Positions 9,482-42,789 of a DNA stretch of 46,899 nucleotides are shown one piece after another. The position numbers and the translations under genes are program-made. This stretch comes from a virus: positions 1 through 46,899 of the IMG/VR virus record IMGVR_UViG_3300020578_000135. One strand, 5' to 3'. Position 1 is the stretch's first letter, and the number at the start of each line of letters is the position of its first letter. The notes under the pieces are model-generated. The model made no database searches. It worked only from the letters and a program-made list of their open reading frames with translations, and was not told the origin of the DNA.

Positions 9482-9507
9482 ATCAACAAATATTAACGAG
9501 GTATTCT

Positions 9508-25948: not shown

Positions 25949-26923
25949 TTATTTACCATATAACTTTTTAACAAGGGGAGACTCCCAAACAGTAGTATTT
26001 TTATATACTCTTTTTACTTTTAAAGGATCATTATGAAAGTGCAATGTATTATCTTCTCTAACTAAATCTTTTGCCAATTGTTCCCATTTTTCTTTGCCAA
26101 AAAGTTTAACTCCACTTGACCATATTTCTGTTTCTTCCACCTCGTGTTTAATATAACATCTGCAGAAGTACTTTTCGCCATTTTGTACAACGCCAACACC
26201 ATGAAAATATGGATGAGTACCCGGAAACAATGGAGACCCAGAAGGAAAAACGACTATATCACCGGCTTTTGGCTTATATGTTATGAGATCTCCATCAATA
26301 AAAAATCTAAGTTCACCACCATCATAGTCATCGTTAATATAAGTTGTACATGTTATGAAAAATTTATCACTAGGCCAATACCATTCTGATATATTAAAAT
26401 CAGTATGATAGTTCATAGATAAATCTCTAATACTTTTGCCATTGCTTTTGCACTCATCGCTTGGCTCAACATGATGGACGCCAATTACAACATCCGAAAT
26501 ATACTTTGCGTAGTTTGGGTTGGTAATGTAAGAATTTTTTGGTAATGTTATTTTATTTTTTTCCACGTAACTAGTACATGCAATAGTCACTGCTGTTCTT
26601 ATTGCATTGCTTGCATGTATCTCTTCATTGAAAATGATTTCTTCTTGATAACGTAGAACATCAGTCAAATCAGGATTAAGATGATTGGTCACCCTATCCT
26701 GAACCGCTAGGTGCATGGGCTTTTCGTCCATATAGCTACCAAAAACAAACCAGTCTTTCCACTTGTCAAAAAAGTATTTACCATTTTGTTCTTCATTTAC
26801 TTTTCTTGATTCAGATTCCCTTAAAGTGTCATATATCCTATCAAGTTGATCAAGCATATTTGAATAAACAAAAATTAATGGATAAATTTCTTTGTAGTCT
26901 AAATTTAGATTAGTTATTTTCAT
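25949..26923 (-). CDS. 2OG-Fe(II) oxygenase (prolyl 4-hydroxylase-like), 324 aa
   Basis: The C-terminal half is a double-stranded beta-helix oxygenase: YHTDFN gives the H-x-D iron ligands, TTYINDDYDGGELRFF and KPKAGDIVVFPSGSPLFPG follow the P4H pattern, and HGVGVVQNGEKYFCRC supplies the distal His and the Arg for 2-oxoglutarate. The first 150 residues are a separate helical part. Such enzymes hydroxylate proteins or small molecules using oxygen and 2-oxoglutarate. ATG overlaps the stop of the next upstream oxygenase (ATGA), so the two are co-translated. The substrate is unknown. Confidence 0.85.
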   Translation of the reverse strand: MKITNLNLDYKEIYPLIFVYSNMLDQLDRIYDTLRESESRKVNEEQNGKYFFDKWKDWFVFGSYMDEKPMHLAVQDRVTNHLNPDLTDVLRYQEEIIFNEEIHASNAIRTAVTIACTSYVEKNKITLPKNSYITNPNYAKYISDVVIGVHHVEPSDECKSNGKSIRDLSMNYHTDFNISEWYWPSDKFFITCTTYINDDYDGGELRFFIDGDLITYKPKAGDIVVFPSGSPLFPGTHPYFHGVGVVQNGEKYFCRCYIKHEVEETEIWSSGVKLFGKEKWEQLAKDLVREDNTLHFHNDPLKVKRVYKNTTVWESPLVKKLYGK

Positions 26924-27561
26924 ATGATTTTATTGAATCTACTTAAAGTGTAAAAATTTGTTACACAGTATTTTACCCCATCTGTAATGGGATCTGTTCG
27001 ATGAAAGGTCAACGCATCAAAAAAAATCACAGAGTTTTTTAAAGGCGAATAAACAAGCGTGGGTTCTTTTTCTCGTTCTTGAAAAAATAAATTTCCACCA
27101 TGAAAATCATCGTTTAAATATAAAATAGAAGACAAATGAACTGTTTGCTTATTGTGAGTAATAACCCATTCTGATTCTGAATCCCAATCTTTATGAAAAC
27201 CTATGTATTGTCCTTTTTCGTATTTGATAATCGTATCCCCTATTTGCGCTAACGTGCGCTGATTATATCTCTCCGCTATAGTTAATTCGTTTTTAATTTT
27301 AATATATGCATTTATTATTGCTGTTTTCGTTTCTAAATCTTGTTCATTGTCAAATGCCATAGTACATTCTTCCAAAGAAGAAAGATGTTCTTGTGGATCA
27401 TTTATATAATAGGCCCTTAGCATTGTTGGCTGAGCATCTTTTTCTGAATCTATTTTATATTGTTCTTTATTTAAATAAAAATATTGATGAGGCATGAAAC
27501 GCAGTAAGTGTTCAATAAAATTAGATGGTAAATAATCATAGTGTATAAAAGTAGAATACAT
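26920..27561 (-). CDS. 2OG-Fe(II) oxygenase (prolyl 4-hydroxylase-like), 213 aa
   Basis: GFHKDWD holds the H-x-D pair, HLSSILYLNDDFHGGNLFF is the typical central strand pair, and SVIFFDALTFHRTDPITDGVKY carries the third His and the 2-oxoglutarate-binding residues. It is about the minimal size for a P4H-type domain. The ATG directly follows the stop of the methyltransferase gene. It belongs to a four-gene minus-strand unit with the other oxygenase and an FkbM-like enzyme, suggesting joint modification of a protein or glycan. Confidence 0.85.
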   Translation of the reverse strand: MYSTFIHYDYLPSNFIEHLLRFMPHQYFYLNKEQYKIDSEKDAQPTMLRAYYINDPQEHLSSLEECTMAFDNEQDLETKTAIINAYIKIKNELTIAERYNQRTLAQIGDTIIKYEKGQYIGFHKDWDSESEWVITHNKQTVHLSSILYLNDDFHGGNLFFQEREKEPTLVYSPLKNSVIFFDALTFHRTDPITDGVKYCVTNFYTLSRFNKII

Positions 27562-28155
27562 TTATGCTGCTTCCCAGTGAAAATTGGCTCTCATCTTTTG
27601 ATGATCGACTACACTTGGATCAACCCACCAATCTTCGTGATGAATTCTTCTTATTAGTGTATAACCAAAAGAATCAAGTATATGTCTTTGTACATCCCTT
27701 GTAATAGAATTTTTATAATACATGTTTGCATCGTGTTCGAAAACTATAACAGTAAACCTATACTGAGAAAGGGGAACGGTTATCAGGCCTTGCAATGTAG
27801 TATAAGGATCCATAGGCCTCATGCTTGGGTAATATCCGCCGTCAATATCAACTTGTAAATAATCAATTTGTTTAGGAAAATTATTATCTTGAAAATAATT
27901 TATATAATTAAATTTTAACGCGTCTCCATAACATGGATTTTTTCTATTTTCTTGAAATTCCATTCTTCTTTCTTCAACTATCTCAAAAGAAACTCCATTC
28001 CATCCAAAATTTTTCTCTAAACAATACGTATTACTTCCATTTTTTGAATGAAAAGCGCCCAACTCTACGTAGTGTCCACCCTCTTTGAATCCAGACATTT
28101 CTAAGGCAAAGCGCTCTTGCTCGCTCATGCTTATTTTATTATTGCTCATCATCAA
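27562..28155 (-). CDS. FkbM-like methyltransferase, 197 aa
   Basis: HYVELGAFHSKNGSNTY matches the SAM-binding start of FkbM-type methyltransferases (VELGA-x-G), followed by LEKNFGWNGVSFEI and a GDAL segment; VDIDGG near residue 108 is the second acidic motif. FkbM enzymes O-methylate sugars or polyketides. Three ATG codons in a row at the start make the exact start unclear. It sits between an unknown gene and two oxygenases, perhaps tailoring the same product. Confidence 0.75.
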   Translation of the reverse strand: MMMSNNKISMSEQERFALEMSGFKEGGHYVELGAFHSKNGSNTYCLEKNFGWNGVSFEIVEERRMEFQENRKNPCYGDALKFNYINYFQDNNFPKQIDYLQVDIDGGYYPSMRPMDPYTTLQGLITVPLSQYRFTVIVFEHDANMYYKNSITRDVQRHILDSFGYTLIRRIHHEDWWVDPSVVDHQKMRANFHWEAA

Positions 28156-28486
28156 CTACTTTATTCCATAATTCAAAATATTCATCAGAGCTAATAAGTT
28201 TGGCAACTTCAGCAACACGGTCGGTGCTTGTCAAGGTTGATCTTTCATTTGATGCAATGGGAGAGTCAAGCTTGAAGTCCGTTACCACTTTCAAAACTGT
28301 CTCTACGATTTCCTCTATGGCCCCTGACGGTTCCAGCAAATGAAACATCAGTATATTTAACTTGTTAAGATTGTCAGTTATGGCTATTGCCACTCTATGA
28401 GCATCAGCGTGAGCAACGGCGTGGCTTGTTAGTATGGTATAAAATTTAATATAATTTTGCGTATAACTATTTTGTTTGTCTTTCAT
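28139..28486 (-). CDS. hypothetical helical protein, 115 aa
   Basis: I favour ATG at 28486 (MKDKQNSY), directly behind a TATAAT box, over the earlier in-frame starts at 28510 and 28495. The protein is helical with a His/Ala-rich patch (SHAVAHADAHRVAIAI) and a negatively charged end. It overlaps the methyltransferase gene by 17 bases. Function unknown. Confidence 0.55.
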   Translation of the reverse strand: MKDKQNSYTQNYIKFYTILTSHAVAHADAHRVAIAITDNLNKLNILMFHLLEPSGAIEEIVETVLKVVTDFKLDSPIASNERSTLTSTDRVAEVAKLISSDEYFELWNKVVDDEQ

Positions 28487-28502
28487 ACTATACATTATAG
28501 CA
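28486..28502 (-). promoter_or_regulatory. extended -10 box with leaderless-type start
   Basis: On the minus strand TGCTATAAT (TG-n-TATAAT; box at 28499-28494) is followed by GTATAGT and then ATG at 28486, 7 bases after the box. There is no ribosome site. The arrangement closely copies that at 20118-20133. Confidence 0.5.
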
Positions 28503-28520
28503 GAAGTCAAATTATAGACT

Positions 28521-29213
28521 CTACATTTTTTCCTTATCTCTTAGTCTATTTTTACTTGCAGCTATAGAAACAGCCAACCCAGCTGCAGCAGCGCTGCCAT
28601 ACAATATAGACTTCCTAGTAGCAAATTTTCTAATAACATTATATCCTGATGCGGATTTTACTTTACTTTCAAGATATTCTCTGGTTGACAGTGATGCTCC
28701 AACTGTGCTTTGAATACTAGCCTGCGGAGTTACGGCCTGTTGAATATTTTCAATAGTCGGCAGAATGCTCTTTCTCTCTAGATTTCTTGGAGTATTTTGA
28801 GCACTTTCTTCAATGGCGGACAATACTTTCTTTCTATTAAATTCCTCAAACGAATCGTCATCGAGTTTGCGACCAGAAGCACGACTGGCTTCTCGCTTAA
28901 GACGTTTATATTCTTTAGACTTCTTGCTTAGGTTTTTTAATTTTTTTCCTGCTTTAACTTTTTTTGGTTGAGGCTCATTTAATCTACGTGAAACGTTTTT
29001 TTCAGAAAAAAAGTCCTGATCTTCAGACAATTCCATCGTCGATCTTGGATCGGTTAGATCGTCTATGTCAAGTATGTTATCTCTCGGAACTCTTGAATCG
29101 TCTGCATTTAAAATATCATCTACGGTTCTAGTATTATTGCCTGGAGATAAACTATTGTCTAGAGATAAAGTATTTAAATCTATAGGGTCTACTTGCGGAT
29201 TTTTTTTAGGCAA
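28521..29213 (-). CDS. hypothetical basic protein with C-terminal membrane-like helix, 230 aa (TTG start)
   Basis: TTG start with GAGAGG at proper distance; no ATG is better placed. Residues 1-70 are acidic and disordered (many Asp and Asn), 80-115 very basic (KKVKAGKKLKNLSKKSK...), and the end holds one Ala/Gly-rich hydrophobic segment (SILYGSAAAAGLAVSIAA) with a basic tail. The layout suggests a virion or membrane-associated structural protein. Family not recognised. Confidence 0.55.
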   Translation of the reverse strand: MPKKNPQVDPIDLNTLSLDNSLSPGNNTRTVDDILNADDSRVPRDNILDIDDLTDPRSTMELSEDQDFFSEKNVSRRLNEPQPKKVKAGKKLKNLSKKSKEYKRLKREASRASGRKLDDDSFEEFNRKKVLSAIEESAQNTPRNLERKSILPTIENIQQAVTPQASIQSTVGASLSTREYLESKVKSASGYNVIRKFATRKSILYGSAAAAGLAVSIAASKNRLRDKEKM

Positions 29214-29247
29214 AAGACACCTCTCTTTGTTAGTTTAAAATAATTTA

Positions 29248-29280
29248 TTTGTTACTATTATATATGTTTATAGTAACAAA
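29248..29280. promoter_or_regulatory. 11-bp inverted repeat between divergent genes, putative operator
   Basis: TTTGTTACTAT and its exact complement ATAGTAACAAA flank 11 bases. It is centred in the 108-base gap between the divergent gene at 29213 and the holin gene at 29322. TATAAT-like sequences lie within it, so a repressor bound there could control both directions. Neither side has the T run expected of a terminator. Confidence 0.5.
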
Positions 29281-29321
29281 AAAAAACACAATGCTTAATT
29301 AATTTTTATTGGAGTATAATT

Positions 29322-29579
29322 ATGGAACAATTAAAGAATATATTACTCAGAATAGTTGCAACCTTTGCTGCATCAGGGTTGGGTGTGGTTGGTGCGGGAA
29401 CAATAGCCGGGGTGCCGATTTGGAAGGCTGTATTTATGGCTGGCATTGCTGGTGTGGCTACAGTTGTGGAAGGATTGTCGCGTGCATTCTTGGACGATGG
29501 CAAGCTCAGTGCTAAAGAAATTAACGAAGTATTCAACAAGGTGGACAAGAAGGCAAAGAAAGTCGCTGATGCAGAATGA
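29322..29579 (+). CDS. holin, 85 aa
   Basis: Two membrane helices (about 9-32 and 34-52: IVATFAASGLGVVGAGTIAG and WKAVFMAGIAGVATVV) with a short turn, then a charged cytoplasmic tail (KLSAKEINEVFNKVDKKAKK). Size, topology and its place three genes before the endolysin fit a class II holin that opens the membrane at lysis. TTGGAG precedes the ATG. Its end overlaps the lipoprotein gene (ATGA). Confidence 0.75.
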   Translation: MEQLKNILLRIVATFAASGLGVVGAGTIAGVPIWKAVFMAGIAGVATVVEGLSRAFLDDGKLSAKEINEVFNKVDKKAKKVADAE

Positions 29580-29770
29580 AAAAAGCGATAGTGACGGTGG
29601 CTATTTTGCTTTTATCTGGATGTGGATACGATGGAAGTTATCGTTACTCATGTCAAGATCCCATAAACTGGAAAAATGAAGAGTGCAATCCGCCGATATG
29701 CAAAGTTGATGGTGCGTGCTCAAAGGATCTTATTGGATTCGATTGGGAGGAAGAAACAGATGAGAAATAA
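29576..29770 (+). CDS. small phage lipoprotein, 64 aa
   Basis: Signal peptide MKKAIVTVAILLLSGC with lipobox LSGC, so Cys16 would be lipidated. The mature part (GYDGSYRYSCQDPINW, CNPPICKVDG) has four more Cys and matches a small lipoprotein seen next to lysis genes of aquatic phages. It may act like a spanin-type partner at the envelope or in superinfection exclusion. Start and end overlap its neighbours. Confidence 0.7.
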   Translation: MKKAIVTVAILLLSGCGYDGSYRYSCQDPINWKNEECNPPICKVDGACSKDLIGFDWEEETDEK

Positions 29771-30053
29771 GAAAAAATTTAGTCCAGAAGAACTTGATGC
29801 GCGTTTAAAATTTGTAGTTGGTTGCGTTCTTGCTGGAGTGCTGGCAATGACAACTGCTGGAGTACTGTATGCATTAGTTTTTGTTACTCAACCTATAGGT
29901 GTTCAATCAGAGAATGATAAGATGTTTTTCGGCGTGCTTTCAAGTGTTGCTACATTCATAACAGGAACTCTTGCCGGCTTGATGATCTCGACGGGCAGGA
30001 ATAAGCACGAGGGGGACCAGACGACCACCGAGGATAGTAGTCAGGAATCATGA
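29760..30053 (+). CDS. two-helix membrane protein, lysis cassette, 97 aa
   Basis: ATG at 29760 with GGAGGAAG upstream. A charged N-terminus (MRNKKKFSPEELDARL) precedes a long hydrophobic helix (about 17-44) and a second one (56-77), followed by an acidic tail. It may be an antiholin or second holin given its place between holin and endolysin genes. Its stop overlaps the endolysin ATG. Confidence 0.6.
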   Translation: MRNKKKFSPEELDARLKFVVGCVLAGVLAMTTAGVLYALVFVTQPIGVQSENDKMFFGVLSSVATFITGTLAGLMISTGRNKHEGDQTTTEDSSQES

Positions 30054-30745
30054 CGCAGGGGTATGTCACCGGCATAGACGTGTCCGAGTACCAGGGAGAA
30101 ATAGCCTGGAAGAAGGTCGCCTCGTTCGGGTTTGATTTTGCATACATTAGAAGCAACGTAGGCACCAAGCAGGATTCCATGCTCGAATACAACTCAAAGC
30201 GCGTAGCGAAAAACAAGATACCGTTCGGTTACTACGTGTACGTGAAGCCAGAACTCAACGCCGAGGAGCAGATATCAATTCTTCTCGAGGCACACTGCAA
30301 GTATGGGGCGAACCTCGCTCCACAGATAGATGTAGAGCACCACGGTGACCTCCACCCAAGGCACGTGAGGAAATCCGTTGACTACATCATCAAGCGTGCG
30401 ACCGAAACACTCGGGAGACCCCCAACGGTGTACAGTGGCGATTGGTTCTGGAATTCGAGGGTCAAGTCGCGCAAGCACGGCAACTGCCCGCTATGGGTGG
30501 CGAAATACGTCCAGTACTCGCATAAGCAATTTGAGCAGAACGGCGTGCCGATGAACCCCGCCGACTGGGTCGATTGGGCATTATCTTTTGAACAGCCCAA
30601 ACCACTGATGGGCTGGAAGGATTGGGACATATGGCAGTTCGCCGCTGGGTATAACAACTGCGGCAAGCGATACGGGATGGTCTCCAACGACCTTGATTTG
30701 AACATCATGAAGGCAGAATGCATGGCGAGGCTTAAGCTAGGCTAA
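30050..30745 (+). CDS. GH25 endolysin (N-acetylmuramidase), 231 aa
   Basis: GH25 fold: GIDVSEYQG (8-16) with the first catalytic Asp, AYIRSNVG, GYYVYVKP, then PQIDVE at about 91-96 with the Asp/Glu pair, and WDIWQFA near 185. It cuts the beta-1,4 bond between MurNAc and GlcNAc in peptidoglycan. There is no signal peptide, so it depends on the holin. The last 20 residues carry no separate wall-binding domain. The gene is much more GC-rich than those upstream. Confidence 0.88.
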   Translation: MTQGYVTGIDVSEYQGEIAWKKVASFGFDFAYIRSNVGTKQDSMLEYNSKRVAKNKIPFGYYVYVKPELNAEEQISILLEAHCKYGANLAPQIDVEHHGDLHPRHVRKSVDYIIKRATETLGRPPTVYSGDWFWNSRVKSRKHGNCPLWVAKYVQYSHKQFEQNGVPMNPADWVDWALSFEQPKPLMGWKDWDIWQFAAGYNNCGKRYGMVSNDLDLNIMKAECMARLKLG

Positions 30746-30772
30746 GCCCAAGAATGGTGGAAAATTCATTCA

Positions 30773-33700
30773 TTACTCCTCGTCGTTTTTTAAGACTTCA
30801 TGAATGTAATGGACGCCCAGAGCTACAGCGGTTGCAATGATAGCCATCTTTCTGGTCTCGCCAGACAATGTAACAAACATTACAAAGCTACCAGCTAGAG
30901 TAAAAGCTAATCCAGCTGTGGTTTCCCAGACTTTCTTGCCCAAACCAAACCAATTCATTTTTTTCATTTCTATACCCCCTTGCATATAGTAATCGAATAT
31001 ACTGTTTCTTGTTAAAATAATATCTTCTTCGTCGCCTTCTGGGCCTTCTATTCCACCGCCTTCTTCCTCTTCTTTTTCTAATTCTTCTTCCTTTCTAGCA
31101 GCGTCTCCAGAACCCACAGAAGCTTGACCCCCACCAGGACTACCCCCACCACCTGAAGACCCCCCAGAAGGGCTCCTGGGGCTTCCAGGGGCCCCTGTAG
31201 AAGCCGCTGCGGTGCCTATTGTGGATATTACGGTGGCAGCCGCTATGATCGTTCTGCGATCCCCTACGTCTATGCTAGAACCGGTTGGCACATACTCATC
31301 AAAGCCTTCTCCGTATATATTAATTTCTTCTTCAAAAGCTTCTTTAATTTCTTCTGGTGCCTCGGTCAAAGCTTCTGACAATTCAGACTTTTGCTCTTCG
31401 GTAAAAAGCTCTGGCTCTATAGCAGCGAATACTTCTTGGGCAGTTTCTGTAGAAACATTATTAAAGTTTTCATTTAAAATAATAGCTACGGCTACAACTG
31501 CGGCTATGGGTTCATCATCTTTTTTAGTTAAAGCCTCAATAACGTTGCCCAGACCCTCAACGGTTTTAACTGACTCAACAAGTTCTGTTGTTTTTTCTTC
31601 CGAAAGTTCTTCTAAAACTTCAACCAATTTGTCCGGTTCAACTTGTTCCACTATTTCCGCAAGCTCTTCTGAACTAGCTTCATCTATTGCGTCCAAAATT
31701 TCTTCAGTTGTTGCGTCTATTTCTATTACTACTTCATCTTGTGATGATTCTGTTTCTTCTTGTGTGGATTCTTCTTGGTCTGTTTCTTCTTGCTGTTGTT
31801 CTTCTTCTGGGGATTGTTCTGGTTCATCAGGAAGAGTCGTCGAAGTTGTCTCAGGCTCCTCAGGCTGAGGTTCCTCTTTATCATCAGGAACAGTAGTTTG
31901 TGGCAATGTTGTCGTTGTTGTGGTACTGGTTGAAGATGTCTCTGGCGGGATGGTCGTTGTTGAGGTCGTTGTTGAAGTCGTTGAAGTCGTTTCAGGAACA
32001 GTAGTTGTCGTCGTGGTCGTCGTAGCCGTTGGAACATAAACAGTTGTAGTAGTTGGGGCAACATATTCGGTAGTGGTGGTAACTGGTGGAACATAAACAG
32101 TTGTGGGCGGCACAGTTGTAGACGGAACCGTAGTTGGTGGAACAGTAGTGGGCGGCAGCGTGGTTGTCGTGGTTGTCGTGGTTGTTGTTGTTGGAGTGGG
32201 GCCGTACTCAAGAACAACACGAAGACGCTTGCCGACTCCAGGGCAGGGATCGCCAAAGCGATTGTTCGACGCCCAGACTGTGACCGTGCTTTCACCAAGA
32301 GCAATGCTGCTGACGTACGATACAGACGAAGCGGCGTGGCAATCACCAATTGTGTAGTTTCCGTTTGAACCGTTTGGAGTTCCGTAGCTTGCGAACAACA
32401 CGTCTGTAAACACGTTGCCCTGAGGAACTGTCAAGGTAAGATTGCCGTTTTCGTTTACTCCTCCCCAGACTGCATTGACAGGGACCGTGGTTGTGGTTGT
32501 GGGAGGAACGGTGGTTGTTGTTGACGTGGTTGTCGTTGTCGTAGAGGTGGTTGTCGTGGTTGTCGTGGTTGTCGTGGAGACTGGGTTTGGATCAACGACG
32601 CTCGCGACAGATGTTGAGTCGCTGATGCGCAGCATGTCGACAAAGTAGATGTCGCCGCCGCCTGAGGGAAGTGTGAAGCTCGAGATGATCTTGCCGTTGC
32701 CGTTGAAATAGATCTCTTTGTAATAGCCAGGAGCCTGGCAGGTTGAGCAGCCGGCGGTAAGAACCGAGTGGCTGATCGTAAATGACGCTGTTGTGTTGTC
32801 GGCGTATGTGACGGTGCCTGTCTCGTTGCCGTTCTTTGCACCAACGCGGAAGTAAAAGCTTCGCGGATTCAACGACGACGGAAGCGTAAATACGACAGGC
32901 TGTGCCGGATAACTTGCGTAGATTGCGTAACCTTGCGTGCCGTAGCCGTTGCTCAGGTTCGCGTAGTACCAACCGCCTTGGTTTGATGTCGTCAGGTTGC
33001 TGTTGTTGACAGTGACGGTAAGACCAGTAAGCGTTGGCCCGGGACCCTCGAATTGTTCTGTTGTCTCTGTGCCTTGACCCGCGGCGGGGATTGTCGTTGT
33101 CGTAGTGGTAGTTGTAGTAGTTGTGGTAGTGGTCGTAGTCGTAGTAGTGGTAGGCGCAACCGCATCGGTTGTTGTCACCGCAAGGGTCATTGCGACCGAG
33201 ACGCCGTCTGCGTCTACAGCGTTCACCGTTACATTCGAGGTGCCCGCCGTAACCGCCGTTATTGTTATCGTGCCCGCCGTAGCGCTTGACATGGATGCCG
33301 ATATCGAACCAAGCGGAACCACCGTCTCGTTGCTTGAAGATTTAGTGAAGGTCCACTGTGCTTGTGTGGTCGCATCATCAGCCAAAACAAATGACGCAGT
33401 TGTCGCTGTGTTTCGGACGATAGAGGCAGCAATTGTCGGCGCAGTCACCACTGTCGGAGCGGTGTTCACTCTGGCTGTTGCTGAGTAGGTGATGTTCCTC
33501 ACCTGTTGAAGGTTGTTGAGCCCACCAGTTGCGGCAGTAAAACCCCAGTAGACCTCGCCGCTGAAGTTGCTGAAGTTTGCCTCAATGTTGGCAGAGACGG
33601 CGTCGAACAACTTTTCACCCGCGTCGAGCATGTCGCCGTCATAGTTCTTGTCGAGCCAGACCGAGACCTTGTCAGTCGTTGACTCCCACAAAATTTTTGT

Positions 33701-34249
33701 TTTGCGCCACTGATTGTCTTCGAGGTTTCCGACGTCGACGGGATTCTGACCCCACTGCGAAGCGGCTATGTGGTAGACGTTCCCGTTCTTCATCAGCCCG
33801 ACGTGGTCGTTGTACGGGTCGTAAACATCGCTGTTCCAGTAGGTGTCGTACTCAACCACGAAGGACGGAGTCACGCCATGGTATCCGAGACCGCCGCCCG
33901 CGCCGCCTGCCGCCGTCGAGTTCGGTTGCATGACGAACGCCATCCCGTCCGCGCCCCAGTCCGATGCGCCGAGGTATACCTCAGCCGTGAGGCAGAAGTC
34001 GTTGGCCAGGTTGATGCGGGTCTTATTCCAGACGGCGCCGAACTGGCCGTTAGTCGCTGGAGTCAGTCGAATCGTGCCAGCATTGTCTTGCCCGACTCCG
34101 CCAAACACGAAGTTGGAAGCAGAGTAGGCGGTGTTGCAGTCACCTGTCGCTTTAACAACAGCACTGTCAAGTGATGAAAAAAAACTAAATAAAAATGCTA
34201 TTGCTACAACTAGCGATACAAAATTTCGCGCAACAAAACGTCTTTTCAA
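30773..34249 (-). CDS. large secreted, membrane-anchored multi-lectin adhesin, 1158 aa (TTG start)
   Basis: TTG start with AGGAGG. Order: signal peptide (1-35), legume-type (L-type) lectin domain about 40-255 (GADGMAFVMQ, FVVEYDTYWNSDVYDPYNDH with its Ca/Mn ligands), an Ig-like region, poly-Thr linker, a beta-sandwich domain, a second poly-Thr linker, then a SUEL/galactose-binding lectin-like domain around 590-680 (FTDVLFASYGTPNG, GDCHAA, NNRFGDPCPGVGKRLRV). More Thr-rich repeats, a long Glu-rich stretch, a Gly/Ser-rich hinge and a C-terminal hydrophobic anchor end it. The GC-rich lectin half and AT-rich anchor half differ in base use, so it may be a fusion. It could bind glycans on the host or between infected cells. 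No phage-tail motif is visible. Confidence 0.75.
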   Translation of the reverse strand: MKRRFVARNFVSLVVAIAFLFSFFSSLDSAVVKATGDCNTAYSASNFVFGGVGQDNAGTIRLTPATNGQFGAVWNKTRINLANDFCLTAEVYLGASDWGADGMAFVMQPNSTAAGGAGGGLGYHGVTPSFVVEYDTYWNSDVYDPYNDHVGLMKNGNVYHIAASQWGQNPVDVGNLEDNQWRKTKILWESTTDKVSVWLDKNYDGDMLDAGEKLFDAVSANIEANFSNFSGEVYWGFTAATGGLNNLQQVRNITYSATARVNTAPTVVTAPTIAASIVRNTATTASFVLADDATTQAQWTFTKSSSNETVVPLGSISASMSSATAGTITITAVTAGTSNVTVNAVDADGVSVAMTLAVTTTDAVAPTTTTTTTTTTTTTTTTTTTTIPAAGQGTETTEQFEGPGPTLTGLTVTVNNSNLTTSNQGGWYYANLSNGYGTQGYAIYASYPAQPVVFTLPSSLNPRSFYFRVGAKNGNETGTVTYADNTTASFTISHSVLTAGCSTCQAPGYYKEIYFNGNGKIISSFTLPSGGGDIYFVDMLRISDSTSVASVVDPNPVSTTTTTTTTTTSTTTTTTSTTTTVPPTTTTTVPVNAVWGGVNENGNLTLTVPQGNVFTDVLFASYGTPNGSNGNYTIGDCHAASSVSYVSSIALGESTVTVWASNNRFGDPCPGVGKRLRVVLEYGPTPTTTTTTTTTTTLPPTTVPPTTVPSTTVPPTTVYVPPVTTTTEYVAPTTTTVYVPTATTTTTTTTVPETTSTTSTTTSTTTIPPETSSTSTTTTTTLPQTTVPDDKEEPQPEEPETTSTTLPDEPEQSPEEEQQQEETDQEESTQEETESSQDEVVIEIDATTEEILDAIDEASSEELAEIVEQVEPDKLVEVLEELSEEKTTELVESVKTVEGLGNVIEALTKKDDEPIAAVVAVAIILNENFNNVSTETAQEVFAAIEPELFTEEQKSELSEALTEAPEEIKEAFEEEINIYGEGFDEYVPTGSSIDVGDRRTIIAAATVISTIGTAAASTGAPGSPRSPSGGSSGGGGSPGGGQASVGSGDAARKEEELEKEEEEGGGIEGPEGDEEDIILTRNSIFDYYMQGGIEMKKMNWFGLGKKVWETTAGLAFTLAGSFVMFVTLSGETRKMAIIATAVALGVHYIHEVLKNDEE

Positions 34250-34356
34250 CTTCAGCGCCTCCTAGGGGCGCACCAATTTTACATCACGCGTAATTGCACT
34301 GGCTTCACCACTGATGTATTATTGTTGTGCACGTTTGATGATGTAGGAGCACTTGT

Positions 34357-36509: not shown

Positions 36510-36520
36510 GGAGACAAATT

Positions 36521-36841: not shown

Positions 36842-36842
36842 T

Positions 36843-37028: not shown

Positions 37029-37036
37029 ACACAAAT

Positions 37037-37321
37037 TTATAAGAAGTGTTTTGCTATTGCCGTTGAGGCAAGGACAACCCACGCGACATTGAACCAGATG
37101 ATTGTCGGGAGCGTCTTTATTGTTGATGTCAGGATGAGCGCAAGGCTCGACACCAGCGCAAATATGTAAAGCCACCACCACTGCTTACCGAACAGCAATC
37201 CAGGAATGATGATGGACAGTTTGGTGCCGAACGCCCAAGCCTCAATTGCGTTGACCTTGTTCCAGTAACTCTTCTCAAAGAATTTCTTGGATATCTGGAC
37301 AATGTCTTGTGGTGTAAGCAT
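37037..37321 (-). CDS. two- to three-pass membrane protein, 94 aa
   Basis: A polar N-terminus (MLTPQDIVQISKKFFEK) is followed by hydrophobic helices around 32-50, 49-68 and 72-90, rich in Trp and Ile. It lies at the convergent junction with the zinc-protein gene. Nothing marks it as a second holin; function unknown. Confidence 0.6.
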   Translation of the reverse strand: MLTPQDIVQISKKFFEKSYWNKVNAIEAWAFGTKLSIIIPGLLFGKQWWWLYIFALVSSLALILTSTIKTLPTIIWFNVAWVVLASTAIAKHFL

Positions 37322-37332
37322 GACTCTTTTCC

Positions 37333-38079
37333 TTAGTCGACCAAATTTTCCTGTATTTCCCGAAGTATGCCTTGCGATATCTTTGCATTCTTAAATAACT
37401 TGTATTTTTCAGAAAGTTTAGCAAACCTTCGGTGTGGAGAAACGTGAATCAATGAACTGGACAACCTGTTTAGGGACTGAGTTAATCTAAATTTTCGTAG
37501 TTCAATTTTTGCGTCGGTTTGACACTCAACGTAACCAATTGGCTCACCTGCTGGAACATGCAATTCGGTGACCCCATACCATAGTTGAAATTCAAAATTC
37601 ATTGGTCTAAACCAATTGGCAACGTCAAACTCTCCAGGAACTATGGCGCCATACTCTGAATGAACTGTTTTGTGAAAAAACGGCGGGCTGATTGAGACGT
37701 TTAACGAAGGGGCATCCGTAAAAAAAATTATTGGGTGCATGTAGTTGAGCAATAAACAATTTTCCAAAGTTGGCTTGTGCAGTAGTTCAATGCCAGTTTG
37801 ATATCTTCGTTGGTCGTCTTCTGACTTGACATCGTATGAGATGTGCTGTCCGTCAATTACGCTGACCCGAGTGTCATTGCTTGACCTCAAAACAAAAATT
37901 TTTTTTAATCTATTCCCAACAGCAGGACAACGTAAATAGTCGTCTCTATTGTCTTTTAGGTCGGCTTTTAGCGGAGATAGTTCTTCAAATAAACTGTTTG
38001 GAAACGGATACAAATGCGAAAAGTCGTATTGGTTTCCCAGGCCGTGTGCTGGTGCCCAATACAGCGTTACTTTGCTCAT
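37333..38079 (-). CDS. conserved hypothetical protein, related in pattern to the one at 39887, 248 aa
   Basis: ATG at 38079 (MSKVTLYW) has AGGA upstream; the TTG at 38085 is worse. The C-terminal half (PPFFHKTVHSEY, WFRPMNFEFQLWYG, LHVPAGEPIGYVEC) follows the same order as the 39887 protein (FRTAPGW..., GTAMYHIVPFER), a pattern I associate loosely with a DUF6065-like family. It sits in the halogenase/oxygenase block. Function unknown. Confidence 0.6.
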   Translation of the reverse strand: MSKVTLYWAPAHGLGNQYDFSHLYPFPNSLFEELSPLKADLKDNRDDYLRCPAVGNRLKKIFVLRSSNDTRVSVIDGQHISYDVKSEDDQRRYQTGIELLHKPTLENCLLLNYMHPIIFFTDAPSLNVSISPPFFHKTVHSEYGAIVPGEFDVANWFRPMNFEFQLWYGVTELHVPAGEPIGYVECQTDAKIELRKFRLTQSLNRLSSSLIHVSPHRRFAKLSEKYKLFKNAKISQGILREIQENLVD

Positions 38080-38088
38080 GGGCAAATC

Positions 38089-38736
38089 CTAGTAGCCAGC
38101 AAAGTCCGCTGGGTCCTCAAAGGGTTGATACGTATCGCACTTGTATTTGGGCAAAAGTTCTAACATTCGCCCTCTCCATGGGAGCCTTATTTCGTCTTCA
38201 TCCATCCATCTTGGTCCTTTTGTGTGATACCAGTGGTCTGGCTCAGTGAAATGTATAAAACACATTTCGAGGGAACTGAAGAAAGAGTTATTTGGAAATT
38301 TTGGTCGCCAGTGCATTTGCTCACTACCGAGATACAAAAGCGCATCACCGTTCTTCATTAGGTATGGCTTGCCTTCTACATAAATCTCCCAATCGATATT
38401 GCCAGCCAATTGTAAATCTATTGTGTATGTGCATGCGTTTATGTCTATGTGTGGGGGTATGTTTGGGGTTCCAAACATTGGGCAATACTTTGCCCACTTC
38501 CAATAAGACGGTATTGCGGTTTCGCCAAAATATGTTTTTGCGCAGCCGTATATTATTTCATAAAACTTGTCATTGACAGTTTTATTAACAATTGAGTTAA
38601 TCATTGGAATATCGTTTGTTATTCGTCCCCAGCCAGTGCTTTTGACAACCTTTTGACCAAACTGCTGATTTGACAATTCCAAACGTATTAATTCATCGGG
38701 AATCAACTGTTGAATCAGAATTGGAAATGTTTTCAT
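38089..38736 (-). CDS. 2OG-Fe(II) oxygenase-like protein, 215 aa
   Basis: PPHIDINACTYTIDLQLAG provides the H-x-D pair and the following strand; KNGDALLYLGSEQMHWRPKF carries the distal His and an Arg. The overall size and order fit a small double-stranded beta-helix oxygenase. It starts within ATGA of the next oxygenase, so both are co-translated. The substrate is unknown. Confidence 0.7.
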   Translation of the reverse strand: MKTFPILIQQLIPDELIRLELSNQQFGQKVVKSTGWGRITNDIPMINSIVNKTVNDKFYEIIYGCAKTYFGETAIPSYWKWAKYCPMFGTPNIPPHIDINACTYTIDLQLAGNIDWEIYVEGKPYLMKNGDALLYLGSEQMHWRPKFPNNSFFSSLEMCFIHFTEPDHWYHTKGPRWMDEDEIRLPWRGRMLELLPKYKCDTYQPFEDPADFAGY

Positions 38737-39440
38737 TGTTCATTATTTGGTTGATTTGCTGGATTGGTGTCAATCACATGAAATTGCTGAATATTGTTAT
38801 GCGTTTCATTAACCGCCGAAGGTCGTCGGTTGGATAATATAAATGAACTAACAATCCATTTGTCGTTTGTTATTGGTACGCACGACTGATGTGGATGAGT
38901 CCAGTTTGCTGGAAAAAGCGCTACTGAGCCAGCAGTCGCTTTTATTTTTAAACCATGAAGTGGGAAAGAGGTTTCTCCACCTCGCTCGACTGTATTTAGG
39001 TACATGACGGCTCCAAGGACCCTAAGACAAGTTGGTTCTGGGTCCCATGGCGCTCCATCGTGATGGCTTCTGTAATATCCTTTTTCCATATTGTATTTTT
39101 GTAGCCTGTAGCCGCTGTCGTAAAGATTTGGCGCTATTCGAATTTCCTGAAATTCTTCAACGTATAGGGATATTGCAGCCCACAACGACCTGTAAATTCT
39201 CATTTCAAATGCTCTGTATTTGTCGTAGTCGCACCCTCTTTCTCGTGCTTGGTCACCACTGAAATCAAAGTCCATTGTCCACTTTATGCTTGTGTCAACA
39301 CCAGCAAGAGTCGGTCCTGGGTAAAACAATTTTTGAAAATCCTCTTTACATGACTCTATTAATTCAGAGCACGTATCAAGCGGGATTATGTCTGGAATGA
39401 CTGCAATATGTGTGCTTTTGCCGCCAATAAGTTCAATCAT
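38733..39440 (-). CDS. 2OG-Fe(II) oxygenase (prolyl 4-hydroxylase-like), 235 aa
   Basis: YYRSHHDGAPW holds the H-x-D pair; VLGAVMYLNTVERGGETSFP is the usual central block; TAGSVALFPANWTHPHQSCVPITNDKW gives the third His and the 2-oxoglutarate-binding Lys/Arg region. It is the clearest P4H-type enzyme of this block. Start and stop overlap the neighbours by ATGA, so it is in a tight operon. Confidence 0.85.
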   Translation of the reverse strand: MIELIGGKSTHIAVIPDIIPLDTCSELIESCKEDFQKLFYPGPTLAGVDTSIKWTMDFDFSGDQARERGCDYDKYRAFEMRIYRSLWAAISLYVEEFQEIRIAPNLYDSGYRLQKYNMEKGYYRSHHDGAPWDPEPTCLRVLGAVMYLNTVERGGETSFPLHGLKIKATAGSVALFPANWTHPHQSCVPITNDKWIVSSFILSNRRPSAVNETHNNIQQFHVIDTNPANQPNNEQ

Positions 39441-39886
39441 TCTTCCTCCGCCTCAAAAGGAACAACTTCGATTGTCGTTGAATTCTTTTCAATATTATCC
39501 AATTTGGCAACAAGTTCATATTTCCCAGGAAACGTTAGTGATATTGCTATTTGAACATGATGTGAATCCATAGCCATTACTGGAACATTCCAGTTATCTT
39601 TTCCTGTTTTTATTCCATATGGTCTAATAAAAAATGAATATTTTGATGATTCATTCCAATCATCTGCATACGTTATTCCAACTGGTTCGCCAACGTATAC
39701 TCGCACGTCCTCTTTGTTGAAGCCATTGTCCGTTGGTATTGAAACCACGCAAATGTTTGTTCTATCAAAATCATGCGATTCACTTCGCTCCGAATCACCA
39801 TGTTGTATGGGCAGTTTCCACTCTTCGGCCAAAGCGTAAGCGTCTTCCACTTTTCTTTCTTGAGGGCAAAATACGAATCTGTACAT
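39437..39886 (-). CDS. hypothetical protein, possible Ig-like beta-sandwich, 149 aa
   Basis: Residues 50-145 alternate hydrophobic strands and end in KYELVAKLDNIEKNSTTIEV, like an Ig-like fold. The ATG directly follows the stop of the upstream gene, and its own stop overlaps the oxygenase start. Function unknown; it may be a virion or enzyme-associated module. Confidence 0.55.
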   Translation of the reverse strand: MYRFVFCPQERKVEDAYALAEEWKLPIQHGDSERSESHDFDRTNICVVSIPTDNGFNKEDVRVYVGEPVGITYADDWNESSKYSFFIRPYGIKTGKDNWNVPVMAMDSHHVQIAISLTFPGKYELVAKLDNIEKNSTTIEVVPFEAEEE

Positions 39887-40726
39887 TTACTCGACCAACT
39901 TGTCCATTCTCTTTTGCTCGCGTTTGTAGCCGCCGTGAGTATCTTCTTTTGTTGTGAATACTGCCCCAAAACCCGTGTGTTTCATTAATCCATGAATTGA
40001 TGCATCTCCCTTTATAACTGAAGTATTCAGCATTGAATGCTTTCTCTCAAAAGGGACAATGTGATACATCGCAGTTCCCTCGTCTATTCTGAACGGTTCG
40101 TTAGTGAGAACGTTGAGTACACAATTTGCACTTGGATACGAATCTGTATGGATAACTGCCCCAAGGACTTGGTAGTTTCGGCTCGGCTCCCACAGAACTG
40201 GCAAAAATAATGAAGACCAGCCTGGGGCCGTTCTAAATACCCATGGATTAACCAGTTTTAAATACGATGATTCGCGAGGCTTTTGTTTTGCCACTGGACA
40301 TTCAGTCCCAGATTGGTAATTAGAAAACTGATTTCTGAAAAGCGAATCCATGGTGAAATAGTAATCCATGTCATCTTCTGACACTGTTTCTGCTTGAAAC
40401 AAATGAGAATCAACTATGTTGTACCGAGCGTCTATCTTTTGGTCAAACTTGGATATGGGGCGGCGTATGTCCAATGATGCCCACAGTGGGAGGATGTACC
40501 CAGTTCTAAGAAAATCTGCCAACCCATAACATCGTTTTAACGAAGTTTCACCGCTGGGAATTTGTTTGTACCAGTCTGGAATTTTTGAGCGCGATTCCCT
40601 GACCGCTAAAGTTGGGTGCCATAATCTGTTGTCGACTGGTGCAGCAAATAATTCATTTGGTTTTGGGGATGGAATTTGGTCCCAAATTTTTGCAGTGCGG
40701 CGCCTACTTTTTGAAAAGGGCCGCAT
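39887..40726 (-). CDS. conserved hypothetical protein (DUF6065-like pattern), 279 aa
   Basis: I prefer ATG at 40726 (MRPFSKSR) over 40792, which overlaps the halogenase gene by 89 bases. Visible blocks are IPDWYKQIPSG, LKRCYGLADFLRTGYILPLW, VFRTAPGWSSLF, HTDSYPSANCVLN and GTAMYHIVPFER, which resemble a conserved family of unknown function sometimes found near tailoring enzymes. It is directly behind the halogenase gene, so a role in halogenation or substrate delivery is plausible. Confidence 0.6.
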   Translation of the reverse strand: MRPFSKSRRRTAKIWDQIPSPKPNELFAAPVDNRLWHPTLAVRESRSKIPDWYKQIPSGETSLKRCYGLADFLRTGYILPLWASLDIRRPISKFDQKIDARYNIVDSHLFQAETVSEDDMDYYFTMDSLFRNQFSNYQSGTECPVAKQKPRESSYLKLVNPWVFRTAPGWSSLFLPVLWEPSRNYQVLGAVIHTDSYPSANCVLNVLTNEPFRIDEGTAMYHIVPFERKHSMLNTSVIKGDASIHGLMKHTGFGAVFTTKEDTHGGYKREQKRMDKLVE

Positions 40727-42167
40727 GGTCAATCTTTCTAGTTTTTGCTTGCTCCATCTTTTTCCCAGCATATATCTTTGCGCATGGCTCATGGCTTTGA
40801 TATGCGTTCAGTTGCTCAAGGGCAACTTCTTTATTTAGGACACCTTGTCCTTGCGCAACATGCCAAAAATGTTCGGAGAGAAACAGTTCATAACCAAAAA
40901 TTGGAATGTCATGGGCTTCTGGCATTCTTTCTTTCCACAATTCAAGCAGGAAATTCAAAGTTGATGGCTTTTCTGCGTGTTGCTGAGCCCTCCACATTTC
41001 GGTGTCTGTTCTGTCAGAAATATAATGTAAGGAAATCATTGTAATGATATTTTCCAGCAAGGATTCGTACCTCAACTTATACTGCCTTGCCTGTGCCTCG
41101 TTGCCAACATGAAAGGTCGGGAGCATTGAGCAAATCATTCTTGCCTGCTGAATTGATGTGCTTATGGCAGTTGCCTCAAGTGGCTCAACAAATGATGTTG
41201 ACAATCCGACCGCAGCACAATTGAATAGCAAGCCATTCTCAAAATATCCAGATTTGAATCTAATTATTCTTGCTGGAGTTATTTCTTTTCCGTGCGCCTC
41301 GGACATTTCCTTTACTGCCTGTTCATCGCTGCAAAAATCGGAAGCAAAAACATAACCGTTTCCGCGACGCTCCTGTGTTGGAATTTCCCACATCCAGCCG
41401 TTGGGCATTGCGCGAGCACGAGTGTACGGGTTTATTCTTCCAGTTTCATCTTTGGGTGTCGGCAAAACAGCGGCAGAATCGCAAGGAATATACTTTCTAT
41501 AACTATTAAATTTATCATTGTCAACAAGTTTGCTCATTAGCACCCTATTAAAGCCACTTGCATCCACGTAAAAATCAGCAGAGCATTTTAGATTAGTGTC
41601 AGTAAAGATGCTGGTTATATTTCCGCTCTCTACATTTCTTTCTATTTTGGTCACTATTCCTTCACCAAACTGAACACCCCTTTGTTTGCATAATTTTGTC
41701 AAATATGCGTTTAACTTAAATGTGTCAAAATGAAATTGATTTGTTGTGGCATGGGGACTTTCCTTGTTGTCCACAACTTTTCCGTTTTCCAAATGTGTCA
41801 ACATTGCTGGTGTCAAAAGCCAATTATTAAAATGCGCAAACGTATAAACGGCATTAAAATTATTGGGTCCTAGTGCGCTGCCGCTAATGCTATGAAAATA
41901 ATCTGGAGTATGATTTGTCCAGTTTTCGAACCGAATTCCATACTTGTGAGTTGCAGCGCATTCCCTTATCATTTCGCCTACTGGAATATTGCACGGCTGC
42001 TGAAAATAGTGGCGCCAGTGTTCTGTGGAACCCTCCCCGACGCCAATAATTCCGATTTTTTCAGAAGATATTACAGTTACTTTATAATTTCTAAATAAAC
42101 TGTTGATAGTTAGCGCAGTGATTAATCCAGAAGTGCCAGAACCAACAATGCATACATGTTTTTGCAC
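40704..42167 (-). CDS. flavin-dependent tryptophan-halogenase-like enzyme, 487 aa (GTG start)
   Basis: GTG start with AGGTGA upstream. VGSGTSGL (8-15) binds FAD; GVGEGSTEHWR and HKYGIRFENW (with the likely catalytic Lys) match the halogenase signatures; NGWMWEIP holds the W-x-W-x-I-P motif that blocks monooxygenase activity. Full length. These enzymes chlorinate or brominate Trp, free or in peptides, and need a flavin reductase, which is not seen here. In the phage context the target may be a tryptophan in a protein or a signalling molecule. It is co-located with four 2OG oxygenase-type genes. Confidence 0.85.
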   Translation of the reverse strand: MQKHVCIVGSGTSGLITALTINSLFRNYKVTVISSEKIGIIGVGEGSTEHWRHYFQQPCNIPVGEMIRECAATHKYGIRFENWTNHTPDYFHSISGSALGPNNFNAVYTFAHFNNWLLTPAMLTHLENGKVVDNKESPHATTNQFHFDTFKLNAYLTKLCKQRGVQFGEGIVTKIERNVESGNITSIFTDTNLKCSADFYVDASGFNRVLMSKLVDNDKFNSYRKYIPCDSAAVLPTPKDETGRINPYTRARAMPNGWMWEIPTQERRGNGYVFASDFCSDEQAVKEMSEAHGKEITPARIIRFKSGYFENGLLFNCAAVGLSTSFVEPLEATAISTSIQQARMICSMLPTFHVGNEAQARQYKLRYESLLENIITMISLHYISDRTDTEMWRAQQHAEKPSTLNFLLELWKERMPEAHDIPIFGYELFLSEHFWHVAQGQGVLNKEVALEQLNAYQSHEPCAKIYAGKKMEQAKTRKIDHAALFKK

Positions 42168-42171
42168 GGCG

Positions 42172-42789
42172 TCACCTGAACCATGTAACCAAAGAATATT
42201 TCACTTCATTGCTGGAATTAGAGCCAACTGGATTGGCGTAATGGAAGTAAGGGAAATTTGAAGGAAACATTACGGCAGAACCAGCCTTTGGCTTTACGGA
42301 AACATTGAACAATGGGAATGTCAATTCGCCACCAGCAAAATTATCGTTCAGGAAAGCAACAATGCTAAAAATTCTTTGATTGGTGGGGTGGTGGTCAACA
42401 TGACCCTTGTATTCTGCGCCACGCCCATACTTGTTGATTGCAAAGCCTTCGTCTTCGTTGACATCAATGTTGTACATATTTCTATACGTCCATACGATTT
42501 TTTGTAAATCCCCATGAATTTTATGCCACGATTCAACGAGGGGGATTATTCTTTGTTCTGCTACGGCTTCCAACGGCATCCCCAGCACCGCCAAGTCGCA
42601 CAATAGCGAAGACCTGTAATCTGGTCTTTCTGATTGTGTTTCAGAGGTTCCAACTCTCGACATATACCAAGAAAGATAACCCCATGACTGACCGCACTCA
42701 GCCTCAACGTCATCTACGAATGTTCCTGGCTTAAAACAGTTATCAAATACAAGCAGACAAGGTGCAAGTTCTTTCGGTTCTGTTGACAT
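42172..42789 (-). CDS. 2OG-Fe(II) oxygenase (prolyl 4-hydroxylase-like), 205 aa
   Basis: YKGHVDHHPTN holds the H-x-D pair, FSIVAFLNDNFAGGELTFP the central strand block, and KPKAGSAVMFPSNFPYFHYANPV the distal His and 2-oxoglutarate site. It lies 5 bases upstream of the halogenase gene and downstream of the collagen-like tail gene, so it may hydroxylate that protein. Confidence 0.85.
   Translation of the reverse strand: MSTEPKELAPCLLVFDNCFKPGTFVDDVEAECGQSWGYLSWYMSRVGTSETQSERPDYRSSLLCDLAVLGMPLEAVAEQRIIPLVESWHKIHGDLQKIVWTYRNMYNIDVNEDEGFAINKYGRGAEYKGHVDHHPTNQRIFSIVAFLNDNFAGGELTFPLFNVSVKPKAGSAVMFPSNFPYFHYANPVGSNSSNEVKYSLVTWFR

What the first reader, a model, noticed from the sequence alone, without database searches (positions are those of the whole stretch)
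25949..42789. Five 2OG-Fe(II) oxygenases, with a collagen-like protein as possible substrate
P4H-like genes at 25949, 26920, 38089, 38733 and 42172 make an unusual number for one phage segment. The last lies beside genes for Pro-rich tail proteins. Hydroxylated prolines in phage tails could stabilise collagen-like shafts.
Basis: partly seen in the sequence, partly recalled or inferred. Interest (0 to 1): 0.63.

Follow-up and report, generated by a model that had tools for sequence, protein, structure and literature searches.

The report
Halogenase-hydroxylase cassette beside phage tail adhesins

Summary
Five 2OG-Fe(II) oxygenase ORFs exist at the stated coordinates: four pass Pfam PF13640; 38089 rests on a PHROG match and an HxD...H motif. 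The count is ordinary for aquatic phages, and the '43132' protein is not collagen (longest Gly-X-X run 5; P=0.13).

What matters was missed. The three oxygenases at 38-43 kb flank an intact flavin-dependent halogenase (40704-42167, PF04820, E=5e-94) and follow a glycine-rich tail protein pair whose long member (HPG, 43132-44292) carries a disordered His/Pro/Asn loop. In 75 of 84 deduplicated virus groups with this halogenase, such a tail protein lies within 4 kb, through three gene orders. Loop composition follows gene content: His-rich with the halogenase (median 10%), Tyr-rich with oxygenases only, neither without the cassette. Oxygenase number tracks Asn and Asn-Pro in the loop after phylogenetic correction. 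VirX1, the only characterised viral halogenase I know of, lies in a similar island in cyanophage Syn10.

Best reading: a tail-adhesin modification island, with HPG as substrate (0.6). The chemistry is inferred: His and Pro/Asn are likeliest targets; halogenated His itself is about 0.35. The His/Tyr contrast is one evolutionary split. The 25949/26920 pair is separate.

The parts
45395..46870 (-). FIB491: tail fibre-like protein, upstream end of the tail module (may be cut by the window end)
   Evidence: phrog_9729 tail fiber E=4.2e-10; homologous tail proteins lie upstream of the cassette in several relatives
45031..45393 (-). U120: small conserved protein preceding the PG pair
   Evidence: phrog_20100 E=4.5e-8; precedes the PG pair in nearly all relatives
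44294..45031 (-). GLY245: short glycine-rich (PG) tail protein, His-poor paralogue of HPG
   Evidence: phrog_13336 E=8.6e-6; His 0-7 in relatives
43132..44292 (-). HPG: long glycine-rich tail adhesin-like protein with His/Pro/Asn-rich loop (about residues 214-338); proposed substrate
   Evidence: 34 His and 31 Pro in 386 aa; loop pLDDT below 50 between more confident halves; N-domain matches haloarchaeal virus 'putative adhesin', hhalign prob 95.9
42825..43154 (-). U109: small protein between HPG and OXY5, possible assembly or adaptor protein
   Evidence: similar small ORFs occur beside OX genes in relatives; no family hit
42172..42789 (-). OXY5: prolyl-4-hydroxylase-like 2OG-Fe(II) oxygenase
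   Evidence: PF13640 E=4.9e-15; PDB 3itq/5hv0 E=1.6e-8
40704..42167 (-).
   Evidence: PF04820 E=5.3e-94; K75, E331 and GxGxxG invariant in 85 of 85 aligned sequences
39887..40792 (-). U301: DUF6065/dUTPase-fold protein that accompanies HAL and PG genes; role unknown
   Evidence: phrog_7084 E=1.1e-16; of 44 family members 8 match DUF6065 and 7 dUTPase; model pLDDT 79.8, weak dUTPase fold match
39437..39886 (-). U149: conserved small cassette protein, unknown
   Evidence: found beside OX genes in most relatives
38733..39440 (-). OXY4: P4H-like 2OG-Fe(II) oxygenase
   Evidence: PF13640 E=5.9e-8; PDB 3itq E=1.9e-5
38089..38736 (-). OXY3: divergent 2OG-type oxygenase (PHROG label 'ferrochelatase')
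   Evidence: phrog_2954 E=6e-15; HID...H motif
37333..38085 (-). U250: conserved cassette protein, unknown
   Evidence: phrog_17480 E=2.1e-21; follows OXY4/OXY3 in the closest relatives; no significant hhalign match to U301
37037..37321 (-). 94-aa protein with hydrophobic (membrane-like) stretches, downstream of the cassette
   Evidence: homologue 73-76% identical near the end of the cassette in L006, L007, L011
25949..26923 (-). OXY1: 2OG oxygenase of a separate cluster, not part of the cassette
   Evidence: PF13640 E=6.9e-8; 2 distant relatives in IMG/VR by a single-sequence search
26920..27561 (-). OXY2: 2OG oxygenase of the same separate cluster
   Evidence: PF13640 E=1.2e-10
27562..28155 (-). 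FkbM-like methyltransferase beside OXY1/OXY2
   Evidence: PF05050 E=0.0037, below the curated cut-off

Best explanation
The 37.3-45.4 kb minus-strand block is a tail-adhesin modification island. U120, GLY245 and HPG are tail-tip proteins. HPG has a beta N-domain and a glycine-rich domain from which a long, repetitive, disordered His/Pro/Asn loop projects. The P4H-like oxygenases OXY5, OXY4 and OXY3 probably hydroxylate loop residues (Asn-Pro motifs are the likeliest site: Pro, or Asn). The flavin halogenase HAL probably halogenates aromatic loop residues, His being the best candidate. U301 and U149 are partner proteins of unknown role. The modified loop would be displayed at the tail tip, where it could alter receptor binding, protect against proteolysis or limit escape by the host. 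Shown: gene linkage across many phages, intact HAL catalytic residues, oxygenase motifs, predicted loop disorder, covariation of loop composition with gene content. Inferred: that these are tail-tip proteins, that HPG is the substrate, which residues are modified, and the benefit.
For: Linkage: 75 of 84 deduplicated HAL groups have a long PG gene within 4 kb (median 1.4 kb), 74 with U301 and 73 with OX, in three arrangements. Composition after residue 150: HAL class His 10%, Pro 6.8%; OX-only class His 3%, Tyr 8.9%, Pro 6.7%; no-cassette PG proteins His 0.3%, Tyr 1.9%, Pro 1.9%. OX number tracks Asn (r=0.59, p=0.0002) and Asn-Pro (r=0.57, p=0.0004) on phylogenetic contrasts, the strongest positive of 20 residues. 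Trp is absent from the loop in 29 of 71 HAL-bearing loci, so Trp there cannot be the general target. HAL K75/E331 invariant, 85/85. Parallel islands: VirX1 (identical to 6QGM) in Syn10, and halogenases in S-WAM1, S-CREM1, P-TIM40, P-RSM6 and Sf-FR1, follow glycine-rich tail proteins and precede oxygenase genes; four of the six also have a U301 relative. S-SRM01's FDH abuts a gp38-like adhesin; DSL-LC01's lies one gene away from collagen-like genes. Relatives carry PF11397 GlcNAc-transferases, 7e-35 in the close relative L008. Precedents for protein-level action: SrpI brominase on proteusins (PMC10858898), QhpG on a protein Trp (PMC7876137).
Against: No biochemical or proteomic data exist for this virus. 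The His-versus-Tyr contrast between HAL and OX-only classes is one split on the tree, so it is a single evolutionary event. Oxygenase number does not track Pro after correction. Several isolate halogenases (S-H38, Syn1, S-PM2, Sf-CH3, S-MbCM6, P-SSM2, S-SSM7, S-H35, CP21) are not directly beside glycine-rich adhesins. Halogenase groups L105 and L111 have no glycine-rich protein at the usual position. No flavin reductase gene was identified in the cassette. The HPG model is poor (pLDDT 59) and has no PDB fold match.
Confidence: 0.6

Rival explanations
1. The halogenase and oxygenases make or tailor a small molecule (halogenated amino acid or sugar, antibiotic, capsule decoration) during infection; their place beside tail genes is incidental.
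For: Iyer and colleagues proposed this for the jumbo cyanophage cluster (PMC7824862); S-SSM7's FDH sits among carbamoyltransferase and sugar genes; VirX1 accepts many small substrates (PMC8407142).
Against: 75 of 84 HAL groups in the window's clade keep it within 4 kb of PG genes, and loop composition covaries with gene content. No NRPS, PKS, carbamoyltransferase or sugar genes were seen in the window's cassette.
Confidence: 0.2
2. The tail-fibre module is a recombination hot spot where unrelated cargo genes accumulate, so linkage carries no functional meaning.
For: Tail-fibre loci are known hot spots of exchange (general knowledge); gene order varies and extra OX or GT genes come and go.
Against: The same gene set persists from 89% to about 43% HAL identity with fixed neighbours; related PG genes without the cassette lack the His/Tyr/Pro loop.
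Confidence: 0.1
3. The His-rich loop is a metal-binding tail tip (Fe, Zn or Ni) that needs no modification; the oxidising enzymes act on something else.
For: HxH and HH are enriched in loops (1.7 and 2.0 times shuffles); HxH-bound iron is known in phage tail tips (own knowledge, not looked up).
Against: Does not explain the link of HAL with His and of OX number with Asn-Pro, nor the Tyr-rich class with the same enzymes minus HAL.
Confidence: 0.1
4. HAL acts on the adhesin but as a monooxygenase or cross-linking oxidase rather than a halogenase.
For: QhpG, a halogenase-like flavoenzyme, dihydroxylates a protein Trp (PMC7876137) and is a weak match to HAL (2.2e-8, far below its cut-off); WxWxIP is WxFxIP in 16 of 85.
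Against: The catalytic Lys and Glu and the first Trp and the Pro of WxWxIP are invariant (85/85), as in true halogenases.
Confidence: 0.15
5. One reading: P4H-stabilised collagen-like tail shaft.
For: P4H-like enzymes; 13 of 24 loop prolines are followed by Gly, the X-Pro-Gly context of collagen P4H; DSL-LC01 has a halogenase one gene away from true collagen-like genes.
Against: No Gly-X-Y register (longest run 5, P=0.13); the Pro-rich segment is a disordered insertion; the model ignores His and HAL.
Confidence: 0.05

Closest known systems
VirX1 flavin-dependent halogenase of cyanophage Syn10 (PDB 6QGM)
   Same: Same enzyme family; encoded after glycine-rich, His-bearing tail proteins and before a U301/DUF6065 relative and 2OG oxygenases, as here
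   Different: Distant HAL (VirX1 scores 185 bits against the HAL profile); Syn10 tail proteins are PF21722-type, not PG-type; a second FDH is present
RiPP flavin halogenases (SrpI brominase on proteusin peptides)
   Same: Flavin halogenase acting on a ribosomal peptide through a disordered region (PMC10858898)
   Different: RiPP leader/core peptides of secondary metabolism, not a virion protein; the expected target here is His-rich, Trp-poor
Poly-Gly-II tail adhesins (gp38 of S16 and PP01)
   Same: Glycine-rich tail-tip protein with variable loops projecting from a glycine-rich core (PMC12892980)
   Different: No detectable sequence or fold match; gp38 is not known to be chemically modified
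Bacterial and viral prolyl 4-hydroxylases (B. anthracis-type P4H 3itq/5hv0)
   Same: Fold family and motif; nearest solved sequences to OXY5 and OXY4
   Different: Substrate here is not collagen-like; target residue unknown
Skp1 hydroxyproline GlcNAc-transferase family (PF11397)
   Same: Occurs in several relatives of the cassette
   Different: Absent from the window; acceptor in phages unknown
Halogenase/2OG cluster of jumbo cyanophages (Iyer et al., PMC7824862)
   Same: Halogenase plus 2OG enzymes in a phage cluster
   Different: Read there as secondary metabolism or capsule decoration, with carbamoyltransferases and sugar genes; not linked to tail adhesins

Membership tests
Flavin-dependent (tryptophan-type) halogenase | PF04820 match over nearly the full length | tested here: met
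   E=5.3e-94, residues 5-447 of 487
Flavin-dependent (tryptophan-type) halogenase | GxGxxG, catalytic Lys and Glu conserved | tested here: met
   G9, G11, G14, K75, E331 in 85 of 85; Lys aligned with PDB 6nsd
Flavin-dependent (tryptophan-type) halogenase | WxWxIP motif | tested here: met
   Window has GWMWEIP; second Trp is Phe in 16 of 85 aligned sequences
Flavin-dependent (tryptophan-type) halogenase | Halide-dependent halogenation activity | not testable with these tools
   needs an enzyme assay
2OG-Fe(II) oxygenase / prolyl 4-hydroxylase | PF13640 above curated cut-off | tested here: met
   OXY1, OXY2, OXY4, OXY5 met; OXY3 has no Pfam hit
2OG-Fe(II) oxygenase / prolyl 4-hydroxylase | HxD...H triad | tested here: met
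   Present in all five by motif and in nearly all relatives
2OG-Fe(II) oxygenase / prolyl 4-hydroxylase | Prolyl substrate | not testable with these tools
   Pro enriched beside OX genes but OX number tracks Asn/Asn-Pro, not Pro
Collagen-like protein | Extended Gly-X-Y register | tested here: not met
   Longest run 5, P=0.13 by shuffling
Poly-Gly-II (gp38-like) adhesin | Homology or fold match to gp38 | tested here: inconclusive
   No PDB sequence match and no Foldseek match, but the model is weak (pLDDT 59), so membership is not claimed
Poly-Gly-II (gp38-like) adhesin | Glycine-rich core with variable loop | tested here: met
   Alignment A1 and model
DUF6065 (U301) | Pfam DUF6065 match above cut-off | tested here: inconclusive
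   Window copy: none; 8 of 44 relatives match at E<0.01, best 5.8e-5; the L239 relative is below cut-off

The most novel reading that the evidence does not exclude
Many aquatic phages, VirX1 phages among them, chemically arm their own tail-tip adhesins: a phage-encoded set of 2OG oxygenases and a flavin halogenase hydroxylates and halogenates (chiefly histidine in the window's clade) a low-complexity display loop. This would be a class of virion protein modification not described before and the natural function of many viral halogenases.
Probability: 0.35. Interest if true: 0.93.

Novelty: new variant of a known kind. Interest (0 to 1): 0.72.

Why it matters
No natural substrate of a viral halogenase was found in the papers searched; phage halogenases and 2OG enzymes are usually listed as auxiliary metabolic genes. 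The gene neighbourhood gives a concrete, testable substrate: glycine-rich tail adhesins with His-, Tyr- or Trp-bearing loops. It would add halogenation and hydroxylation to the chemistry phages use on their own virions, suggest a new layer of host recognition, and offer enzymes that act on repetitive His/Pro/Asn peptides. Because cultured cyanophages such as Syn10, S-CREM1 and S-WAM1 carry like islands, proteomics on existing stocks could settle it.

Tried and rejected
Collagen reading of HPG: rejected by the register test. All five oxygenases as one system: rejected; 25949/26920 sit in a separate cluster with two distant relatives. DNA relatives among isolates: none by megablast. GLY245 homologues in the isolate phage collection: none at 1e-5. 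Host from genome contigs: one weak hit only, so the host stays unknown. First scan with Gly-rich PG profile A4 picked poly-Gly patterns and gave 3 loci; redone with the N-domain. Trp in the loop as general halogenase target: rejected, absent in 29 of 71. Oxygenase number versus Pro: the raw correlation of 0.62 vanished after phylogenetic contrasts (r=0.16). HAL versus His as independent repeats: not possible, one split. HPG fold search: no match. Promoter scan: no excess over shuffles. The VirX1 paper itself is not held.
Full report
Observation. Four pass the Pfam cut-off for PF13640; 38089 is supported only by phrog_2954 and an HxD...H motif. Five such genes are not remarkable: HTVC008M annotates six within 7 kb, and S-CREM1 seven in about 4.6 kb with one JmjC gene among them. 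They form two clusters. 25949/26920 lie beside a weak FkbM-like gene and have two distant relatives in IMG/VR by a single-sequence search. 38089, 38733 and 42172 belong to a larger block. The window is an IMG/VR record of 46,899 bases, probably a fragment, host unknown.

What was missed. Between the oxygenases, 40704-42167 encodes a flavin-dependent halogenase (PF04820, E=5.3e-94; phrog_2928, E=3.1e-100). In 85 aligned sequences the FAD motif, the Lys aligned with the catalytic Lys of solved halogenases and the Glu of EPLEA are invariant; the second Trp of WxWxIP is Phe in 16.

The tail protein. HPG (43132-44292) has an N-terminal beta domain, a glycine-rich half, a segment of about 125 residues rich in His, Pro and Asn, then the second glycine-rich half. 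AlphaFold2 gives more confident flanking parts and a loop below pLDDT 50 (overall 59, so weak). It is not collagen: the longest Gly-X-X run is 5, expected by chance at P=0.13. In the loop 22 of 24 prolines follow Asn or His and 13 precede Gly. Its neighbour GLY245 is a His-poor paralogue. The N-domain also occurs in haloarchaeal virus proteins annotated 'putative adhesin' (tblastn E=0.01; hhalign prob 95.9), near a U301 relative but no halogenase.

Linkage. Halogenase and HPG profiles fetched relatives from viral contigs, and broader PG queries sampled relatives without the halogenase. After deduplication, 75 of 84 groups with the halogenase have a long PG gene within 4 kb, 68 with PG upstream on the same strand, 6 downstream, 1 on the opposite strand. 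Of the nine exceptions, four (L080, L124, L136, L137) are short or truncated contigs; L089, L098 and L100 have a different glycine-rich tail protein close upstream; L105 and L111 have none at that position. Only the 80 best of 570 halogenase hits were returned, so this describes the nearer clade.

Composition follows gene content. From residue 150 on, long PG proteins with the halogenase have a median of 10% His; with oxygenases but no halogenase 8.9% Tyr and 3% His; with no cassette gene near 0.3% His and 1.9% Tyr. Pro is equal in the two cassette classes (6.8 and 6.7%) and low without (1.9%). On a tree of the short PG protein the His/Tyr change happens once, so the p-values overstate it and the halogenase-His link is suggestive, not replicated. 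Within the halogenase clade, the number of oxygenase genes correlates with Asn frequency (r=0.59, p=0.0002, 33 contrasts) and Asn-Pro (r=0.57, p=0.0004), the strongest positive among 20 residues; Pro as such does not. By raw count of residues, Asn is not significant. This fits hydroxylation at Asn-Pro sites, on either residue.

Trp is absent from the loop in 29 of 71 halogenase-bearing loci, which argues against Trp there as the general halogenase target; His and Tyr remain.

Isolates. Among 19 isolate or named records with a halogenase examined, eight place it beside glycine-rich tail proteins or one gene from collagen-like ones: Syn10, S-WAM1, S-CREM1, P-TIM40, P-RSM6, Sf-FR1, S-SRM01, DSL-LC01. 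In Syn10 one of two adjacent halogenases is VirX1 itself (identical to 6QGM over 530 residues by phmmer extent and score), after three glycine-rich proteins with 6-11 His and before a U301 relative (hhalign prob 97.2) and PF13759 oxygenases. S-SRM01's sits next to a gp38-like adhesin whose glycine-rich part carries a Trp/Cys-rich insert. Others (S-H38, Syn1, S-PM2, Sf-CH3, S-MbCM6, P-SSM2, S-SCSM2R, S-SSM7, S-H35, CP21, HTVC008M) lie in other contexts (S-H38 has a glycine-rich ORF 4.5 kb upstream), so not every phage halogenase need have this role. This sample was chosen by hand.

Partners. PF11397 GlcNAc-transferases, the family of the Skp1 hydroxyproline enzyme (family meaning from own knowledge), occur in seven OX-only groups beside the PG genes and beside the cassette of the close relative L008 (7e-35). 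They suggest that hydroxylated residues can be glycosylated further in relatives; none is in the window. U301 has a dUTPase-like fold signal and a role I cannot name.

Conclusion. The best-supported reading is a tail-adhesin modification island with HPG as substrate. Linkage of the enzymes to the adhesin pair is strong (my estimate 0.85); HPG as substrate 0.6; His halogenation 0.35. A literature search of the held library found secondary-metabolite or capsule readings for phage halogenases (PMC7824862) and auxiliary-metabolism readings (PMC10611076, PMC10452541), and none that names tail adhesins; the library is incomplete and lacks the VirX1 paper.

Noticed in passing
window 6632-11118 and 20133-20762, + strand: A JAB-domain protein (PF14464 1.2e-6, weak PRTRC_A), ThiF/E1-like protein (PF00899 1.8e-12, PRTRC_ThiF-like), an 84-aa ORF that may be ubiquitin-like (no hit), a CDC48-like AAA ATPase (2e-40) and a weak proteasome-beta-like protein: a possible phage ubiquitin-like/PRTRC-like module.
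   Followed up: partly
window 30773-34249, - strand: 1158-aa protein with an L-type lectin domain (PF18483, 5.7e-43), a SUEL lectin domain and long Thr tracts, followed on the other strand by tail fibre-like genes.
   Followed up: no
window 25949-28155, - strand: Second cluster of two 2OG oxygenases with a weak FkbM-like methyltransferase; nearly no relatives in IMG/VR by a single-sequence search.
   Followed up: partly
L095:6377-8254 and L093:6185-8254: HPG relatives with extreme His repeats (about 20% His, runs such as RSNHHHHTQTNHHHHTDSHHHTRS) beside the halogenase.
   Followed up: no
L070, L270, L271, L274, L276, L278 and relatives: Halogenase-free cassettes whose long PG loop is Tyr/Pro/Asn-rich and nearly His-free, with PF11397 GlcNAc-transferase genes near the PG pair.
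   Followed up: partly
L239:15616-15861: A ferredoxin gene (Fer4_15, 2.9e-19) lies near the end of the halogenase-free oxygenase cassette.
   Followed up: no
L315:7491-8579 (S-SRM01): Gp38-like adhesin next to a flavin halogenase carries a Trp/Cys-rich insert (CWGGGECGRRQVCNWWGNCWWEASQW) and no His: a possible Trp substrate.
   Followed up: no
L312:6889-7710 (HRTV-15) and L320:7654-8391 (S-CREM1): U301/DUF6065 relatives near tail adhesins; the S-CREM1 copy is annotated 'triphosphate nucleotidohydrolase', probably a fold-level label.
   Followed up: partly
PHROG labels on the OXY proteins: PHROG calls these 2OG-type proteins 'DNA endonuclease V' and 'ferrochelatase', and the same names appear in cyanophage records: probable propagated misannotation.
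   Followed up: no
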